Below, one piece after another: positions 1-14,444 of a DNA stretch of 31,549 nucleotides. Numbering within the stretch: position 1 is the first letter of the stretch; the number at the start of each line of letters is the position of its first letter. A model generated the notes under the pieces. It was not told the DNA's origin. It ran no database searches and was given only the letters and a program-made list of their open reading frames with translations. A program made the translations under genes and the position numbers. The DNA is from a virus. The stretch spans positions 1 through 31,549 of the IMG/VR virus record IMGVR_UViG_3300048929_000167. One strand, written 5' to 3'.

Positions 1-161
1 CTATCAGACACGGTATCGCAAGAGCTCTGCTTGAGGCAGATATAGAATATCGTCCAATTCTTAAGAAAGCTGGTTACTTAACCAGAGATCCAAGAATGAA
101 AGAAAGAAAGAAATACGGCTTAAAGGCAGCTCGTCGTGCACCTCAGTTCTCAAAGAGATAA
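1..161 (+). CDS. rpsI: 30S ribosomal protein S9, C-terminal end (host gene, partial)
   Basis: The frame beginning at base 3 is open to a TAA at 159-161 and encodes the last 52 residues of ribosomal protein S9. Recognisable parts are the [11 protein letters not shown] stretch, the [16 protein letters not shown] segment and the conserved ending APQFSKR, the tail that reaches into the ribosomal P site. The 5' part lies before the window. This is the only host gene seen. Because the phage integrase ends only 144 bp downstream and points toward it, the 3' end of rpsI is the probable chromosomal attachment site. I cannot define the duplicated core because the right end of the prophage is not in view. 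Confidence 0.95.
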
Positions 162-304: not shown

Positions 305-1360
305 TTATATTAGGTTAATAGCCTCTAATAATTCGCTTACATCAAGGTGAGTATACACACGTTCCGTAAGGGTTTGCGCACCAGCGTGACCAACGATTTT
401 TTTTATGGTAGTTGGATACACCTTGCAAGATGCTAGAAGACTTATACAAGTATGGCGAGTGTCATGTGGTTTATGACTCAGACTAAATTCTTGCATTATA
501 GGCGTGAAATAGGAATCATAGTAATTACGATATTGAAAATATGATCCATCAGGGGTGACTAATAAATGATCGCACTCGCTTTTTTTATACCAATATTCAA
601 AAAATGAAAATGTTTTGTCGGCGATTGGAACGGCTCGGATACCAGCATTCGTTTTTGAATGTCTAACATAAAACCATTTTTCATCTAAATGAACATCCGA
701 TTTCTTCAAATCTAACAATTCAGAGACACGTACACCAGAGTAAATCAGCATTAAGATAGTTGAAACATATTCGTTACATTCTACATTATCCCAAAGATTT
801 TTAATCTCATTTTTTGTAAAAGGACTACGATTCATTTTATCTGGATTTCCGGAATCTTTAATATTCAAATATTCAACCATATTTCTATCTTTTGATATGA
901 TCTCATTCATTACTGCATAATCAAATACTTGACCCAAAAGAACTTTTAATTTTCTAAGAGTGGGGTAATTTTTCCCGGAAGTATCAACAATGTTTTGGAG
1001 ATGCAATAACTTGATTTCAACAAATGGCATATTATAAATACATTCACAAGTTTTATACGAAGCCTTGTATCCGTTAATGTTTGAGGGAGATATTTCGTTG
1101 AATTTTCGGGCACTCCATTTTTCGTATACTTCGGAAAATGTTATCTTATTTGCATTGATATCATACGGATTAGTATTATATTCAGCCAATGCCTGGAGGG
1201 CCTCTTGCCGAGTAGCATAATAACCAATTGTAATACGCTCCTGATATGATTTTTTTGTATCTACATTTATATGATAGTTAATCGTTTTTTGTACATGATA
1301 GGGCTTACGGCGTTTGCCGGATAGCTTGCGTATAGAACCATATCCGTTAGGCATTTTCAT
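305..1360 (-). CDS. int: Phage tyrosine integrase
   Basis: A site-specific recombinase that would integrate and excise the prophage. From the start chosen here it is 351 residues long, a normal size. The N-terminus (MKMPNGYGSIRKLSGKRRKP) resembles the AP2-like arm-binding domain of Firmicutes phage and Tn916-type integrases. A SAM-like core-binding domain (TFSEVYEKWSARKF) follows, then the catalytic domain with Arg in SGVRVSELL, His and Arg in HDTRHTC, His in VGHAG and the nucleophile Tyr in VYTHLD. The frame is open upstream to 1513, but the ATG at 1358-1360 has an AGCAGG ribosome site at good spacing, so I prefer it. A short hairpin (1414-1427) followed by T residues on the minus strand lies in its leader and could attenuate it. 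The gene points at rpsI, consistent with attL there. Confidence 0.92.
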   Translation of the reverse strand: MKMPNGYGSIRKLSGKRRKPYHVQKTINYHINVDTKKSYQERITIGYYATRQEALQALAEYNTNPYDINANKITFSEVYEKWSARKFNEISPSNINGYKASYKTCECIYNMPFVEIKLLHLQNIVDTSGKNYPTLRKLKVLLGQVFDYAVMNEIISKDRNMVEYLNIKDSGNPDKMNRSPFTKNEIKNLWDNVECNEYVSTILMLIYSGVRVSELLDLKKSDVHLDEKWFYVRHSKTNAGIRAVPIADKTFSFFEYWYKKSECDHLLVTPDGSYFQYRNYYDSYFTPIMQEFSLSHKPHDTRHTCISLLASCKVYPTTIKKIVGHAGAQTLTERVYTHLDVSELLEAINLI

Positions 1361-1417
1361 ATATATACCTGCTTTCGTTAGCATTGCTAATTTATTTTTA
1401 AGCACAAAAAATACACC

Positions 1418-1446
1418 TATACAGGTGCATGGAAAAATGATATAAT
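1418..1446 (+). promoter_or_regulatory. Plus-strand promoter opposite the integrase leader
   Basis: TATACA (1418-1423), a 17-bp spacer and a perfect TATAAT (1441-1446), preceded by TG at the extended -10 position. No plus-strand protein gene follows, only two hairpins and a terminator, so it probably makes a short RNA. Confidence 0.5.
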
Positions 1447-1450
1447 ATTT

Positions 1451-1527
1451 ACGTCCATATATTATATCGGGTTCATGCCCGTATAGTATTTCTAGCCTTT
1501 GTGTAGTCAGCACAAAGGCCTTTTTTT
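1451..1527 (+). ncRNA. Candidate small RNA opposite the integrase leader
   Basis: From the promoter at 1418-1446 a transcript would start near 1451-1453. It would form a hairpin around CGGG/CCCG (near 1468-1482, extended by TATA/TATA) and end at a perfect 9-bp terminator stem (495-503 with 511-519 of the 1 kb block, i.e. 1495-1503/1511-1519) followed by seven T. The product would be about 75 nt with no start codon and ribosome site pair. It lies antisense to the integrase 5' leader if int is transcribed from upstream of 1530, so it could limit integrase expression. The alternative is a stray terminator guarding int from readthrough. No homologue is known to me. Confidence 0.45.
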
Positions 1528-3894: not shown

Positions 3895-3968
3895 AAAGAA
3901 AAATGCACCTGTCATTATTCCCGTAATGATAGGTGCAAAACTTTAAAGCACAGCTGTAAAAATCTTAC
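3895..3968 (-). ncRNA. Small antisense RNA in the leader of the rep gene
   Basis: A complete RNA gene can be read on the minus strand. The promoter at 4003-3975 predicts a start near 3968. The RNA (about 74 nt) ends in a 14-bp terminator hairpin (3937-3924 pairing with 3917-3904, one wobble, loop of six) followed by TTTTTCTTTTT. It contains no open frame of note. It lies about 135 bp upstream of the rolling-circle Rep gene and is complementary to any rep mRNA reading through from the early operon. This is the arrangement of countertranscribed RNAs that set copy number in rolling-circle and theta plasmids of Gram-positive bacteria. The function is inferred; the promoter and terminator are directly visible. 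Confidence 0.75.
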
Positions 3969-5824: not shown

Positions 5825-6597
5825 GGGTGATAAGCATTATTAATCTCAAGGGCGGAGTTGGTAAAAGTTTTACCGCCGCTCAAATGGGATATTTATTAAG
5901 TCAGCAACAAGGGGCCACTGTACTCCTGCTGGATAATGATAAGCAAGGAAATTTGTCTAAGCTTTTTGGAGTCTATGACAGAAACGGTATGTGTCCTTCG
6001 GCTCAACTGTTAATGGGCCGCAATAGTGCCGAAGGGGTAAGACAGGAAACAGAATATTATAATCTTGATATCATTAGTGCAAATATGAATCTCCTTACCG
6101 CAACAATGCAGTTACAGCAGGACGGATCAGCAGAACAGTGTAAAAAGTATGAAAGCCTCAAGTGCTCGGAAAACCGAGCAGGCAGACCATATGATTATGT
6201 AATAATTGATAATCCCCCGGATATTGGACTAAATGTAATAAATGCTCTTGCTGTTACTAATGACGTGATTGTGCCTATTAAGATAGATCAATGTGCCATA
6301 GAGGGTATGGATATAATGACCGGGCAAATATCGCAAATGCAAGCCATGAATCCAGATATCCGTTTTATGGGGGCTTTGGTAACGATGTATAAAAACAATG
6401 TCACTAATGCATCGGGAATTGAATGGCTACAGAAGAATGATGTAAAACTATTTGATACCTTTATCCGGTACAGTGATAAGGCAGCAGAAAGCACTCTCTT
6501 TCAAAAGCCGATTCAGGAATACAGCCCACGGAGCGGAACCGCAAGAAGTTACAGGCAGTTTGTGCAGGAGTATATCACCAGATCGGGGGCGAAGTAA
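5821..6597 (+). CDS. parA: ParA-family partition ATPase
   Basis: A 258-residue MinD/ParA-type P-loop ATPase. The deviant Walker A box LKGGVGKS spans residues 9-16, with the signature Lys10 and the P-loop Lys15. LLLDNDKQGN is the switch region after strand 2, and YVIIDNPPDIG is Walker B. These proteins segregate low-copy plasmids together with ParB on a centromere. There is no N-terminal helix-turn-helix, so this is a type Ib/Soj-like short ParA that does not itself bind an operator. It is coupled to the nuclease gene upstream (ATGA) and to parB downstream (TAATG). Confidence 0.9.
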   Translation: MRVISIINLKGGVGKSFTAAQMGYLLSQQQGATVLLLDNDKQGNLSKLFGVYDRNGMCPSAQLLMGRNSAEGVRQETEYYNLDIISANMNLLTATMQLQQDGSAEQCKKYESLKCSENRAGRPYDYVIIDNPPDIGLNVINALAVTNDVIVPIKIDQCAIEGMDIMTGQISQMQAMNPDIRFMGALVTMYKNNVTNASGIEWLQKNDVKLFDTFIRYSDKAAESTLFQKPIQEYSPRSGTARSYRQFVQEYITRSGAK

Positions 6598-7778: not shown

Positions 7779-8786
7779 GTGAAAGAAAAAATTATCAATG
7801 AGATTTTAATGCAAATGGTTTCTCATATTAACACTGAAACATTGAGGATACTGGAAACAGTCATTATAAAGGCTTTGTACTACGTGGAGGTACAGAAAAA
7901 GGAAACCGAACTGTCCACGGAAATGGACGATAACCTGTATCTGCTCAAAGCCTATGAAATGAACGTCAGAAAAGATGGACTAAGTGATAAGACCATAAAA
8001 GCGTATATGGGAGCCATGAAAAACATGATTTGTATTACTGGTAAAAATATTAGGCACATAACCTCGGTGGATATTAAGTACTATCTGGATTTGTATACCG
8101 GAAAAGGTAACAACACTAGAACGGTTAACAATGAACGCCGCTTTCTTTCCGCAGTTTTTACATGGTATCGCAAACACGGAATTATCAATACAAATCCAGT
8201 CGAGGCCGTCCCGGTAAAAAAGGAACGTAAGCCACCCATTGATTATCTTAAGGGCGTAGAAGTAGAGCGGTTAAGGGTTGCTTGTAAGCAACCAAGGGAA
8301 CGGGCATTAATGGAATTCCTCTTAAGCACAGGAGTACGTGTTGGAGAAATACCGCAGATACGCAGAGAGGATATTGATTGGAATACTGGTGAAATCCTCA
8401 TATATGCTCATAAAACCTCTGATTATCGGACGGTATTCTTAAACGATGTTGCCAGGGTACACATGGAAAAGTATCTAAATACCAGGACGGATACAAGTGA
8501 GGCTCTTTTTGCAAGAGTAAGAGCACCGTTTAAAGCGGTGCAAGAGGACGGATTAAGGCTAATCATTAAGAAAATCGGAGAAAAGGCAGGATTAAAGCGG
8601 AGGATATACCCTCACCTTTTCAGAAAAACAATGGCAACAACACTAAGATTTAAAGATTGTGCTATTGAAGATATACAACAGATGTTAGGGCATAAGAACC
8701 CGTCCACAACACTTGGTTTCTATGCAGCAGGAAATAAGGAACATTTGAGACAGGTACACAGTAGATATATGAGTGTTGGGGCTTAA
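7779..8786 (+). CDS. XerC/D-like tyrosine recombinase (second recombinase)
   Basis: A 335-residue recombinase distinct from the integrase at the left end. A SAM-like core-binding domain (about residues 50-140, AYEMNVRKDGLSDKTIKAYMGAM) precedes the catalytic domain with Arg in STGVRVGEI, His and Arg in PHLFRKTMATT, His in LGHKNPSTT and the nucleophile Tyr in LGFYAAG. The GTG start has a GAGGGGGAAG ribosome site. Being downstream of rep and parAB, it fits a plasmid-type multimer resolvase, or it could act on an accessory site in the element. A candidate site with 6-bp arms and 6-bp centre lies 120 bp downstream. Confidence 0.88.
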   Translation: MKEKIINEILMQMVSHINTETLRILETVIIKALYYVEVQKKETELSTEMDDNLYLLKAYEMNVRKDGLSDKTIKAYMGAMKNMICITGKNIRHITSVDIKYYLDLYTGKGNNTRTVNNERRFLSAVFTWYRKHGIINTNPVEAVPVKKERKPPIDYLKGVEVERLRVACKQPRERALMEFLLSTGVRVGEIPQIRREDIDWNTGEILIYAHKTSDYRTVFLNDVARVHMEKYLNTRTDTSEALFARVRAPFKAVQEDGLRLIIKKIGEKAGLKRRIYPHLFRKTMATTLRFKDCAIEDIQQMLGHKNPSTTLGFYAAGNKEHLRQVHSRYMSVGA

Positions 8787-10683: not shown

Positions 10684-11328
10684 ATGAAAATATTAGTAGC
10701 CTGTGAAGAAAGTCAGGCAGTAACGATAGAGTTAAGAAAATTAGGGCATGAAGCCTACAGTTGTGACATAGAACCATGTTCGGGTGGGCACCCAGAATGG
10801 CATTTACAAGAAGACGTGATTCCACTATTGAAAAAACATTGGGATATGATTATTGCATTTCCTCCATGTACTCATCTTGCCGTATCTGGAGCTGCGTGGT
10901 TTGAAGAAAAACGGAAAGACGGAAGGCAGCGTGAAGCAATTGAATTTTTTATGCAGATATTAAATTCTGATTGTGAAAAAATTGCAGTTGAAAATCCGGT
11001 TAATATTATAAGCGGTAAATACATAGGAAAGCATTTTAAAGATTTACAAGATAAGTACGGCTTTCCAATTAAACCATCACAGTCCATACAACCATATGAG
11101 TACGGGCATATGGAACAGAAGAAAACTTGTTTGTGGTTAAAAGGACTTCCTTTATTACAGTCAACAAACAATGTATATGAAGAAATGATGGAGTTGCCAA
11201 AAAATAAACGGGAGAGGCTGCATTATCTTCCGCCGAGTGAAGATAGAGCGAAAATAAGGAGCAAGACGTTCCATGGGGTAGCAGAAGCCATGGCAGAACA
11301 ATGGGCTGGGGTTAATCAACAAAAGTAG
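10684..11328 (+). CDS. DNA (cytosine) methyltransferase-like phage protein, copy 1
   Basis: A 214-residue Rossmann-type protein. MKILVACEESQAVTIELRKLGHEAYSCDIEP is a SAM-binding start, with the acidic residue ending strand 2. DMIIAFPPCTHLAVSGAAWF carries the PPC catalytic-type motif IV and IAVENPVN the ENP/ENV-type motif VI of C5-cytosine enzymes. The end (RSKTFHGVAEAMAEQWAG) is typical of this compact phage family, annotated as a putative DNA methyltransferase. It is much shorter than bacterial C5 enzymes and has no clear target-recognition domain. There is no strong ribosome site; GGAT stands 5 bp before the ATG. A close paralogue follows directly. Likely role: modify or protect phage DNA. 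Confidence 0.78.
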   Translation: MKILVACEESQAVTIELRKLGHEAYSCDIEPCSGGHPEWHLQEDVIPLLKKHWDMIIAFPPCTHLAVSGAAWFEEKRKDGRQREAIEFFMQILNSDCEKIAVENPVNIISGKYIGKHFKDLQDKYGFPIKPSQSIQPYEYGHMEQKKTCLWLKGLPLLQSTNNVYEEMMELPKNKRERLHYLPPSEDRAKIRSKTFHGVAEAMAEQWAGVNQQK

Positions 11329-11340
11329 AATTGAAAAATA

Positions 11341-11395
11341 TTGAAAGGGGACTGGAGCATCGGCCGATGTAATGGGAATTCCCGGCTCCTTTCAA
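11341..11395 (+). promoter_or_regulatory. Structured leader before methyltransferase copy 2
   Basis: TTGAAAGG (11341-11348) and CCTTTCAA (11388-11395) form a perfect 8-bp outer stem. It encloses two self-complementary stretches, CATCGGCCGATG and GGGAATTCCC. The start codon at 11401 follows 5 bp later with no GGAGG, so translation may depend on this fold or on a 10-codon mini-frame (11371-11403) whose stop overlaps the ATG. Confidence 0.4.
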
Positions 11396-11400
11396 AAAGA

Positions 11401-12021
11401 ATGAAAATATTAGTAGCTTGCGAAGAAAGTCAGGCAGTAACAATAGAGTTAAGGAAATTAGGCCATGAAGCCTATAGCTGTGATACTGAGCCGTGTTCTG
11501 GAGGATACCCAGAATGGCACTTGCAACAAGATGCAACACCGTTGTTAAAGCAGCATTGGGATATGATTATAGCGTTTCCTCCTTGCACTTATCTTACGAA
11601 CGCAGGTGCAAGGCACTTGTGGAAGAATCACGAATTAAATCAGGAACGCTACGAAAAGGGGCTTGAAGCAAAAGAATTCTTCATGATGTTTTATAATGCA
11701 GACTGCGAAAGGATAGCAATAGAAAATCCTACAGCAAGCCGTATATATGAGTTGCCGGAAAAATCCCAGGTAATACAGCCTTATATGTTCGGGCACCCAT
11801 TTACAAAGCGTACACAACTATGGCTTAAGGGATTGCCGCCATTACTTCCCACGGACCTTGTAGAGCCTGAAAGAACATGGTGCCCGTCTGGATCCTATTC
11901 AGGAAAACATGGAGATAAGCATAGGGGAATGTTTACGACGGATAGGGCGAAGAATCGGAGTAAGACTTTTTCGGGAATAGCAAAAGCCATGGCAGAACAA
12001 TGGGCTGGTGAAATCAAGTAA
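11401..12021 (+). CDS. DNA (cytosine) methyltransferase-like phage protein, copy 2
   Basis: A 206-residue paralogue of the preceding gene. The first 58 residues are nearly identical apart from a few substitutions (SCDTEP for SCDIEP, GGYPEWHLQQDATPLLKQH for GGHPEWHLQEDVIPLLKKH), and DMIIAFPPCTYL and IAIENPTA repeat the key motifs. The middle and the region before the common ending (RSKTFSGIAKAMAEQWAG) have diverged, including a Trp/Gly/His-rich insert (RTWCPSGSYSGKHGDKHRG). The pattern suggests tandem duplication followed by change of specificity in the centre, or conversion that keeps the N-terminus alike. The frame is open from 11341, but 11401 matches the start of copy 1. Confidence 0.76.
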   Translation: MKILVACEESQAVTIELRKLGHEAYSCDTEPCSGGYPEWHLQQDATPLLKQHWDMIIAFPPCTYLTNAGARHLWKNHELNQERYEKGLEAKEFFMMFYNADCERIAIENPTASRIYELPEKSQVIQPYMFGHPFTKRTQLWLKGLPPLLPTDLVEPERTWCPSGSYSGKHGDKHRGMFTTDRAKNRSKTFSGIAKAMAEQWAGEIK

Positions 12022-12386: not shown

Positions 12387-12415
12387 TTGAATATTGATAG
12401 TTGGTATGGTAAAAT
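12387..12415 (+). promoter_or_regulatory. Promoter of the membrane moron gene
   Basis: TTGAAT (12387-12392), a 17-bp spacer and TAAAAT (12410-12415), with TG at 12407-12408 (extended -10). It overlaps the left copy of the 17-bp inverted repeat (12389-12405), so any protein binding that repeat would control this promoter. Confidence 0.7.
12389..12405 (+). repeat. 17-bp inverted repeat, left copy
   Basis: GAATATTGATAGTTGGT. Its exact reverse complement is at 13195-13211, immediately after the membrane protein gene. The two copies bracket 806 bp. Confidence 0.8.
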
Positions 12416-13189: not shown

Positions 13190-13227
13190 AAAAAACCAAC
13201 TATCAATATTCGGTAGTTGGTTTTTTT
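13190..13227 (+). terminator. Terminator of the membrane moron, containing the right inverted repeat copy
   Basis: AACCAACTA (13194-13202) pairs with TAGTTGGTT (13214-13222), followed by T to 13227. A-residues on the left make it usable from both strands. The left arm and loop (13195-13211) are the exact reverse complement of 12389-12405. Confidence 0.85.
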
Positions 13228-13274
13228 GTACTCAAAACCGAGAAATAAATCAGGTAAACGAATATTTAGCAAAG

Positions 13275-13306
13275 AAAGAAAAAAGGCCGGAGATAAATGC
13301 TCCGGC
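13275..13306 (-). terminator. Terminator of the minus-strand 56-residue gene at 13330-13500
   Basis: A perfect 7-bp GC-rich stem (GCCGGAG 13286-13292, CTCCGGC 13300-13306, loop of seven). A T-rich tail follows only on the minus strand (13284-13275). It lies 23 bp past the stop codon of the small minus-strand gene. Confidence 0.8.
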
Positions 13307-13329
13307 TGGGTGATTCAACTCTTATGTAT

Positions 13330-13500
13330 TTACAAATTAATAAGTACAAAAGAAATAGCAAAGCTATATGGTTCCCACTGAGTGGGAAGTGCTGGTGATA
13401 TAGACTCTATTAAAGTGCCTAGAAAATGAAAAAAATTGCGGTGTTTTATAAAAAAACTTATACCCCTTTGAAGCTTGTAATAAAAAATTGAGTTATTCAT
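13330..13500 (-). CDS. Small minus-strand protein, 56 residues, unknown
   Basis: A short frame with an AGGAGG ribosome site 8 bp before the ATG and an intrinsic terminator just past the stop, so it reads as a real small gene. The product begins MNNSIFYYKLQRGISFFIKHRNFFHF, aromatic and basic, and ends SFAISFVLINL, hydrophobic, perhaps membrane-associated. The start codon sits in the loop of a GTTAT/ATAAC hairpin. No clear promoter was found; transcription may begin in or beyond the 62-bp repeats upstream. Toxin-like peptide, regulator or decayed gene are all possible. Confidence 0.5.
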   Translation of the reverse strand: MNNSIFYYKLQRGISFFIKHRNFFHFLGTLIESISPALPTQWEPYSFAISFVLINL

Positions 13501-13568
13501 ATAACTTTCCTCCTATTGGTTTTAAGCTTTTTATTAACAAGGGTAGAATTACGGTCCTATAGAAAAGA

Positions 13569-13847
13569 GAATGGGTAAATTCATTTACCACTGCTACAAA
13601 TTAAGGAAGAATGGTGTTAGGGGTAAAAAGCAATGTATAGAATCTTTTACTACTGCTATTCAGGTGGGAAGTAATGTGTTAGAGAAGAAAAACAATGTAT
13701 AGAATCTTTTACCACTGCTATTCAGGCGGGAGGTAATGTGTTAGAGAAGAAAAACAATGTATAGAATCTTTTACCACTGCTATTCAGGCGGGAGGTAATG
13801 TGTTAGGGGTAAAAAACAATGTATAGAATCTTTTATCACTGCTATTG
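13569..13847 (+). repeat. Array of 62-bp tandem repeats
   Basis: Four copies of a unit starting CAATGTATAGAATC (13631, 13693, 13755, 13817) are spaced exactly 62 bp apart, and a divergent copy precedes them (13569-13630). The last copy is cut after about 30 bp. Units 2 and 3 are nearly identical; unit 1 differs at three positions in its first 45 bp. Tail variants alternate: GTTAGAGAAG in units 1 and 2, GTTAGGGGTA in units 0 and 3. Each unit has GGTAA and TTACC elements that can pair, and a 13-codon mini-frame (MYRIFYHCYSGGR or close variants). The stretch 13501-13953 has no supported protein gene otherwise. Possible roles: centromere or origin repeats, protein-binding array, or structured/peptide-coding RNA. 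There are no spacers, so it is not CRISPR. Confidence 0.9.
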
Positions 13848-13953
13848 TGTAAATAGGAATGTCAAAAGAACTGCTATATGCTTAGAAGAAATAGAGATGT
13901 TATTAGTAAAATGAAAGTTATCTATCAAATATTTTCAGGAGTAAGAAGGACAT

Positions 13954-14208
13954 ATGACGGACGAACAATATAAAAGAGCGGTAGAAATAAAGAGAGAAAT
14001 AAACAAATTGGAAAGTTTTATGTTTTGGTGTTCAGGGAAGCGTGAAGGAGGAAGAAGATATCCTACGGCACTAATAGCAATAAAAAGAAAATGGTTAGGC
14101 GGAGTTAAGTCCGAGGAATACGATTTACCAGACAGATTACAAGAACAAATAATACAGTGCATTGAAAACGAACTGGATATTTTAAATACAGAACTAAAAG
14201 AATTGTAA
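13954..14208 (+). CDS. Small phage protein, 84 residues
   Basis: ATG with an AGAAGGA ribosome site. A helical, charged protein (QYKRAVEIKREINKLESFMFW at the start, LQEQIIQCIENELDILNTELKEL at the end) with a basic centre (KREGGRRYPTALIAIKRKW). This looks like a coiled-coil hairpin with a positively charged turn. It is the first gene after the repeat array and overlaps the next start in a TAATG. No family recognised. Confidence 0.7.
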   Translation: MTDEQYKRAVEIKREINKLESFMFWCSGKREGGRRYPTALIAIKRKWLGGVKSEEYDLPDRLQEQIIQCIENELDILNTELKEL

Positions 14209-14444
14209 TGGTAATTACCAGAAAGGAGTTTATGAGAAAAACATCTAAGGAATGCAGAGAGGAAAAAGCAAGGCGTGAAAAGGCGTTACAGACTGAAATT
14301 GCTATGGCTATAAAATCACAGCCAGTTAAAACTTGCAGCGCAACCGAGCCAGCATATTTATATACAGCTTTATGTACTGATCCTAAACGCAGGAAAGCAA
14401 AATATACACCTATGCTAAGAATAAATAAATCAATGGGAAAGTGA
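14208..14444 (+). CDS. Small basic phage protein, up to 78 residues
   Basis: The ATG at 14208 overlaps the preceding stop codon (TAATG), suggesting coupling. A second in-frame ATG at 14232 has AAAGGAG, but only 3 bp away. The product is very basic (TRKEFMRKTSKECREEKARREKALQ) with a short hydrophobic/aromatic stretch (TEPAYLYTALCTDPKRRKAKYTP). Possible nucleic-acid binding. Unknown family. Confidence 0.6.
   Translation: MVITRKEFMRKTSKECREEKARREKALQTEIAMAIKSQPVKTCSATEPAYLYTALCTDPKRRKAKYTPMLRINKSMGK

What the first reader, a model, noticed from the sequence alone, without database searches (positions are those of the whole stretch)
13569..13847. Exact 62-bp tandem repeat array between early accessory genes and the late region
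Five units with an exact 62-bp period fill an otherwise gene-free stretch. Two tail variants are distributed among the units (0 and 3 against 1 and 2), pointing to recombination within the array. Each unit offers GGTAA/TTACC pairing, a weak promoter-like pair on the minus strand (CTGAAT, 18 bp, TATACA) and a 13-codon mini-frame. The frame of the mini-peptides keeps start and stop in three full units. No known phage element comes to mind. Candidates are a ParB centromere, an origin, a protein sponge, or a peptide/RNA array feeding the adjacent small minus-strand gene.
Basis: seen in the sequence. Interest (0 to 1): 0.7.

Follow-up and report, generated by a model that had tools for sequence, protein, structure and literature searches.

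The report
Private 62-bp minisatellite in prophage slot
A short stretch of DNA in a Clostridia phage has been copied head to tail about four and a half times; the copying is real and its last step can be read from the sequence, but related phages lack it, so it looks like a local duplication in a swappable cargo region rather than a core phage part.

Summary
The array is real: 13564-13846, period exactly 62 bp, about 4.6 units, TRF score 370 against at most 68 in shuffles. The middle three units are 87-94% identical; the end units are diverged or cut off. Unit 2 is letter for letter the 5' part of unit 3 joined to the 3' part of unit 1, so one backward slip or one unequal exchange explains both the extra copy and the 'two tail variants'.

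The array lies in a variable cargo slot, between a conserved terminator and the late small-gene run. Six related phages covering this place lack it, and in one (L029) the whole 1-kb insert is missing. No related DNA was found in the collections searched. The virus carries ParA, ParB and an HUH Rep protein, but relatives with 67-77% identical ParB have no array, so a centromere or origin role is unlikely. The mini-frames show no codon constraint, and no promoter exceeds chance.

Most likely it is a private, non-coding minisatellite between two divergent small genes. One hint of RNA function remains: three substitutions between units all preserve a plus-strand hairpin. By anatomy it resembles the pseudo-ToxI arrays of phage phiTE, but its unit is 62, not 36, nt, and membership is not shown.

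The parts
13564..13846 (.). 62-bp tandem array, about 4.6 units: U0 13564-13625, U1 13626-13687, U2 13688-13749, U3 13750-13811, U4 13812-13846 (partial)
   Evidence: TRF, lag-62 identity and unit comparison, shuffles
13688..13749 (.). Unit U2, an exact chimera of the 5' part of U3 and the 3' part of U1 (breakpoint at unit position 45-57)
13709..13736 (+). Predicted plus-strand hairpin of U2 (TTACC A CTGCT ATTCA GGCGG GA GGTAA); same in U1 (13647-13674) and U3 (13771-13798); the three U1 differences all keep pairing
   Evidence: fold energy itself not significant (z about -1)
13330..13500 (-). Probable small gene, 56 aa, AGGAGG 8 nt before its ATG; no homologue found
13286..13306 (-). Terminator-like hairpin just after the 56-aa ORF on the minus strand
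   Evidence: 1.5 such sites expected by chance in the scanned 3.1 kb
13954..14208 (+). Small phage gene, 84 aa, unknown function; homologues in other phages have no array upstream
13190..13226 (+). Conserved terminator that marks the left edge of the variable slot
13236..14216 (.). Variable cargo slot holding the 56-aa ORF, the array and the 84-aa gene; missing in L029, filled with other genes in L008 and L026

Best explanation
A lineage-private, non-coding minisatellite inside a variable cargo (moron) slot of a ParAB/HUH-Rep temperate phage of Clostridia. A single 62-bp unit between two divergently oriented small genes was duplicated, and the middle of the array then gained a further unit by one backward slip of replication or one unequal exchange between U3 and U1, producing the chimeric U2 (shown from the sequence). 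The end units, outside this process, have drifted. The array most likely has no essential role; at most it is part of the leader or upstream region of the flanking small genes (inferred).
For: Exact 62-bp period, homogeneous middle and diverged ends. U2 equals U3 5' + U1 3' exactly, and the reverse combination never does. No array in any of the six relatives that cover the place (L007, L008, L016, L026, L028, L029) nor elsewhere in their records. In L029 the conserved terminator is followed within about 55 bp by the sequence equivalent to 14217, so the whole insert is missing. Other relatives hold different genes in the slot. No DNA relative in phages, plasmids, IMG/VR (two patterns), 84,980 genomes (one 23-base pattern) or samples of 391 and 11 whole genomes beyond chance-size hits. 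Differences between units are mostly non-synonymous in all six frames.
Against: Three substitutions between U1 and U2/U3 all keep a plus-strand hairpin, including one change on both sides of a pair; about 1.5% by chance for three random changes. The period never drifted by an indel. Both hint at constraint, but they rest on few events, and palindrome correction during replication could produce the paired change without selection.
Confidence: 0.6

Rival explanations
1. [quoted passage not shown]
For: Intergenic, about 4.6 units, mosaic, grown by slippage or exchange, as in phiTE (4.5-5.5 repeats, mosaic, slippage proposed; PMC3475682). Substitutions keep the unit hairpin. A type III family is named after a Coprococcus system (PMC5086642).
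Against: Unit of 62 nt against 34-36 nt in the ToxIN family. No Rfam match at gathering score, and none in the array even at a loose threshold. Fold energy not better than shuffles. No promoter above chance. No matching host array found by a 23-base pattern in 84,980 genomes.
Confidence: 0.14
2. A cis-regulatory array (operator or leader) for the divergent genes 13500-13330 (-) and 13954-14208 (+), with GGTAA/TTACC words as binding half-sites.
For: Position between divergent genes; the minus ORF has AGGAGG at 8 nt and a terminator-like hairpin behind it. The word GGTAAA/TTTACC recurs in the palindrome at 13253 that relatives share.
Against: No promoter above chance on either strand. In relatives the palindrome's outer bases change together while the loop stays constant (L029, L028), which looks like a hairpin rather than fixed half-sites. 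Homologues of the 84-aa gene have no array. The 56-aa ORF has no homologue.
Confidence: 0.13
3. A ParB centromere (parS) or replication origin with iterons.
For: The window encodes ParA, ParB and an HUH Rep protein; centromeres are often tandem repeats (PMC9499535).
Against: The array lies 5.9 kb from parB and in cargo, not core. L026, L027, L028 and L029 have ParB 67-77% identical and no array or comparable intergenic repeat in the DNA held. An inverted repeat at 3904-3937, just upstream of rep and conserved in relatives with covarying arms, is a better candidate.
Confidence: 0.04
4. An array of translated mini-peptides (13-codon ATG frame MYRIFYHCYSGGR, or the 8-codon GTG frame VLEKKNNV behind GGGAGG).
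For: Starts and stops are kept in the middle units; the GTG frame sits 4 nt after GGGAGG, and the two frames overlap or abut through the array.
Against: Non-synonymous codon differences outnumber synonymous ones in all six frames, and no frame stands out. The end units run on to 43 and 31 codons. The 43-aa frame has no match in phages, Pfam or PHROGs. Near-identical copies keep frames automatically.
Confidence: 0.05
5. An assembly artefact in copy number: the true array may be longer or shorter than in this contig.
For: The contig is an IMG/VR record; short-read assemblers can collapse or expand repeats (own knowledge).
Against: The units carry distinguishing substitutions, and U0 and U4 anchor unique flanks, so an array as such is not an artefact.
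Confidence: 0.04

Closest known systems
Intergenic minisatellites (variable-number tandem repeats) of bacterial and phage genomes (own knowledge)
   Same: Head-to-tail copies, homogeneous middle, diverged ends, growth by slippage or unequal exchange
   Different: Here the last growth step is readable from a chimeric unit; copy-number variation between strains could not be tested
pseudo-ToxI locus of phage phiTE (PMC3475682)
   Same: Intergenic, non-coding, 4.5-5.5 units, mosaic units, expansion by slippage
   Different: 36-nt unit against 62; phiTE's unit resembles a known antitoxin, this one resembles nothing found; no transcript known
Type III antitoxin arrays (ToxI, antiQ; PMC5086642)
   Same: Tandem RNA-scale repeats beside a small gene
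   Different: No ToxN-type toxin gene next to it, unit too long, no terminator found between array and the minus-strand gene
Fst-type type I toxin-antitoxin loci with direct repeats (PMC3543317)
   Same: Small ORF with direct repeats in an intergenic region
   Different: No family match for the ORF, the repeats do not overlap its start codon, no antisense RNA identified
parS centromere of pSM19035 (PMC9499535)
   Same: Tandem repeats on an element with ParA and ParB
   Different: Those repeats are 7 bp and overlap promoters of partition genes; here 62 bp, 5.9 kb away, absent from relatives with a similar ParB

Membership tests
Minisatellite grown by slippage or unequal exchange | Head-to-tail copies of constant period beyond chance | tested here: met
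Minisatellite grown by slippage or unequal exchange | Internal copies homogenised, a unit explainable as a recombinant of two others | tested here: met
Minisatellite grown by slippage or unequal exchange | Copy number differs between strains carrying the array | not testable with these tools
   No second carrier found
Type III toxin-antitoxin antitoxin array | ToxN/CptN/TenpN-type toxin gene downstream | tested here: not met
   Neighbouring proteins have no significant Pfam, PHROGs or PADLOC match
Type III toxin-antitoxin antitoxin array | Repeat of about 34-36 nt (ToxIN family) | tested here: not met
   Unit is 62 nt; lengths from PMC5086642
phiTE-like pseudo-antitoxin decoy | Array transcribed and able to neutralise a host toxin | not testable with these tools
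   Needs RNA and plating experiments
ParB centromere / replication origin | Present in relatives that have the same ParB or Rep | tested here: not met
   Absent from L026, L027, L028, L029
ParB centromere / replication origin | Bound by ParB or Rep | not testable with these tools
   Binding assay needed
Peptide array | Synonymous bias in codon differences between units | tested here: not met
   5-12 synonymous against 38-45 non-synonymous in every frame
Conserved RNA element | Structure more stable than shuffles or supported by covariation in many sequences | tested here: inconclusive
   z 0.49, -0.88 and about -1; one both-sides change

The most novel reading that the evidence does not exclude
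The array encodes a plus-strand chain of RNA hairpins carried as phage cargo, a natural decoy or antitoxin mimic of a new 62-nt type that neutralises a host RNA-protein defence, expanded by slippage as in phiTE.
Probability: 0.08. Interest if true: 0.8.

Novelty: new member of a known kind. Interest (0 to 1): 0.27.

Why it matters
If neutral, it is a clear small example of how cargo DNA in temperate phages is remodelled: the last duplication step can be read from one chimeric unit. If it makes RNA, it would be a natural counterpart to the laboratory-selected pseudo-ToxI arrays, in Clostridia, where the papers searched here describe no such counter-defence RNA.

Tried and rejected
Rfam scans: nothing at gathering score, and only chance-level matches outside the array at a loose threshold. 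Two IMG/VR patterns and one genome-wide pattern: none. BLAST of the array in phages and plasmids: only a 29-bp chance match in a Lactococcus phage gene. Whole-genome sample: three hits of 22-38 bp, judged chance because none sits in a tandem array. The 56-aa minus ORF: no homologue; the weak hits are partial, some inside longer frames or across stops. The resemblance of the unit's CTGCTATTCAGGCGGGAGG to the family's gene-start leader GCTGCCAGGGCAGCAGGAGG was considered and left open as too weak. The palindrome at 5860 lies inside the parA P-loop codons and was discarded (reading of the sequence). No terminal inverted repeats that would mark the insert as a transposon were evident. Kin genomes could not be drawn for a virus record, so the likely host group could not be targeted; the host genus (Lacrimispora) is only a guess from IMG taxon number 648028018 of L026 (own recollection).

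Full report
What is there. TRF finds one strong array in the window: period 62, score 370. Forty dinucleotide shuffles give at most 68 for periods of 20 or more. Identity at lag 62 places the array at 13564-13846, about 4.6 units without indels. U1-U3 are 87-94% identical; U0 is 63-71% identical to them; U4 matches for about 35 nt and then runs into unique sequence.

How it grew. Between U1, U2 and U3 eight columns vary. U2 carries the U3 state at all of them up to position 45 and the U1 state from position 58 on. Written out, U2 = U3[1..b] + U1[b+1..62] for every b from 45 to 57, and the reverse combination never fits. This is the product of one backward slip of a replication fork, or one unequal exchange, in a parent array U0-U1-U3-U4. 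The chimera is shown; whether slip or exchange made it cannot be told.

Where it sits. The window is an IMG/VR virus record with integrase, repressor-type HTH protein, HUH Rep, ParA, ParB, a second tyrosine recombinase, a late-type transcription regulator, HNH nuclease and terminase. On the left, a gene of 253 aa ends at a terminator (13190-13226) conserved in L008, L026 and L029. On the right is the small-gene run that starts at 14208, conserved in relatives. Between them the content is variable. L029 has only about 55 bp there. L008 has a gene of 335 aa and one of 75 aa. L026 has another set that includes a probable DNA methylase by reading of the sequence. The window has a 56-aa minus-strand ORF, the array and an 84-aa plus-strand gene. 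None of L007, L008, L016, L026, L028 and L029 has the array. The array therefore belongs to cargo, not to the phage's core.

Is it anything known? No DNA relative was found in phage or plasmid records, in IMG/VR by two patterns, in 84,980 species genomes by one 23-base pattern, or in samples of whole genomes. The only other hits were 22-38 bp and not tandem. These searches are limited: patterns need exact matches, and genomes of the likely host group could not be targeted.

Centromere or origin. ParA and ParB make this a fair idea, but L026, L027, L028 and L029 encode ParB 67-77% identical and hold no array. A centromere should be shared by elements with a similar ParB. An inverted repeat at 3904-3937 just upstream of the Rep gene is shared by six phages and its arms covary; it is a better candidate for either function.

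Peptides. Codon differences between units are mostly non-synonymous in all six frames, with no frame favoured. Near-identical copies keep start and stop automatically. No support.

RNA or operator. The consensus scan calls no promoter in the array, and a more permissive score finds none above shuffled DNA. Fold energies are not better than shuffles on either strand. One observation stands against pure neutrality: U1 differs from U2 and U3 at three sites within a predicted plus-strand hairpin, and all three keep the pairs, two of them as a change on both sides of one pair. Three random changes would do this about 1.5% of the time. It is a single comparison chosen after seeing the fold, and correction of quasi-palindromes during replication (own knowledge) can make matched changes without selection. 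It is a lead, not a demonstration.

The flanking genes. The minus-strand ORF 13500-13330 has AGGAGG 8 nt before its ATG and a terminator-like hairpin 24 bp after its end, so it is probably a gene, though without homologues. The 84-aa gene has relatives in other phages, none with an array upstream.

Nearest precedents. phiTE pseudo-ToxI is the closest by anatomy: intergenic, expanded to 4.5 or 5.5 repeats, mosaic, slippage proposed (PMC3475682). Type III antitoxins of the ToxIN family have 34-36-nt units and a toxin gene beside them (PMC5086642); both features were tested and not met here. It may work like a decoy, but it cannot be filed as one.

Verdict. A real, private, non-coding minisatellite in a variable cargo slot, with its last growth step legible. 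Function is most likely none or minor; a hairpin-RNA role is possible at about 0.14.

Noticed in passing
12387-12415 and 13190-13226: A cargo gene (253 aa) sits between a promoter-like site and a terminator that are both conserved in L026 and L029, while the gene differs in each phage; the terminator's CCAACTATCAATATT is the reverse complement of AATATTGATAGTTGG in the promoter.
   Followed up: partly
13253-13270; L008 3863, L026 16153, L028 11388, L029 14561: A GGTAAACGAATATTTACC-like element, one copy per phage before the late small-gene run; the inner CGAATA is constant and in several phages the outer bases change together.
   Followed up: partly
7659, 9701, 9931, 14705 and many places in L007, L008, L025-L029: A dispersed leader hairpin ahead of genes, GCTGCCAGGGCAGCAGGA, followed by the ribosome-binding site.
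   Followed up: partly
3904-3937: Inverted repeat upstream of the HUH Rep gene, conserved with covarying arms in the window and five relatives; candidate origin, centromere or terminator.
   Followed up: partly
10684-11328 and 11341-12021: Two neighbouring genes whose starts and ends are about 80% identical in DNA (repeat families D2 and D4): a gene duplication.
   Followed up: no
305-1513 (-) and 7779-8786 (+): Two tyrosine recombinases together with ParA, ParB and an HUH Rep protein: a phage-plasmid-like gene set in a phage that also has an integrase beside its repressor.
   Followed up: no
L029 11231-12369: A long collagen-like repeat (periods 18-63, over 1 kb) in the cargo region of a relative.
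   Followed up: no
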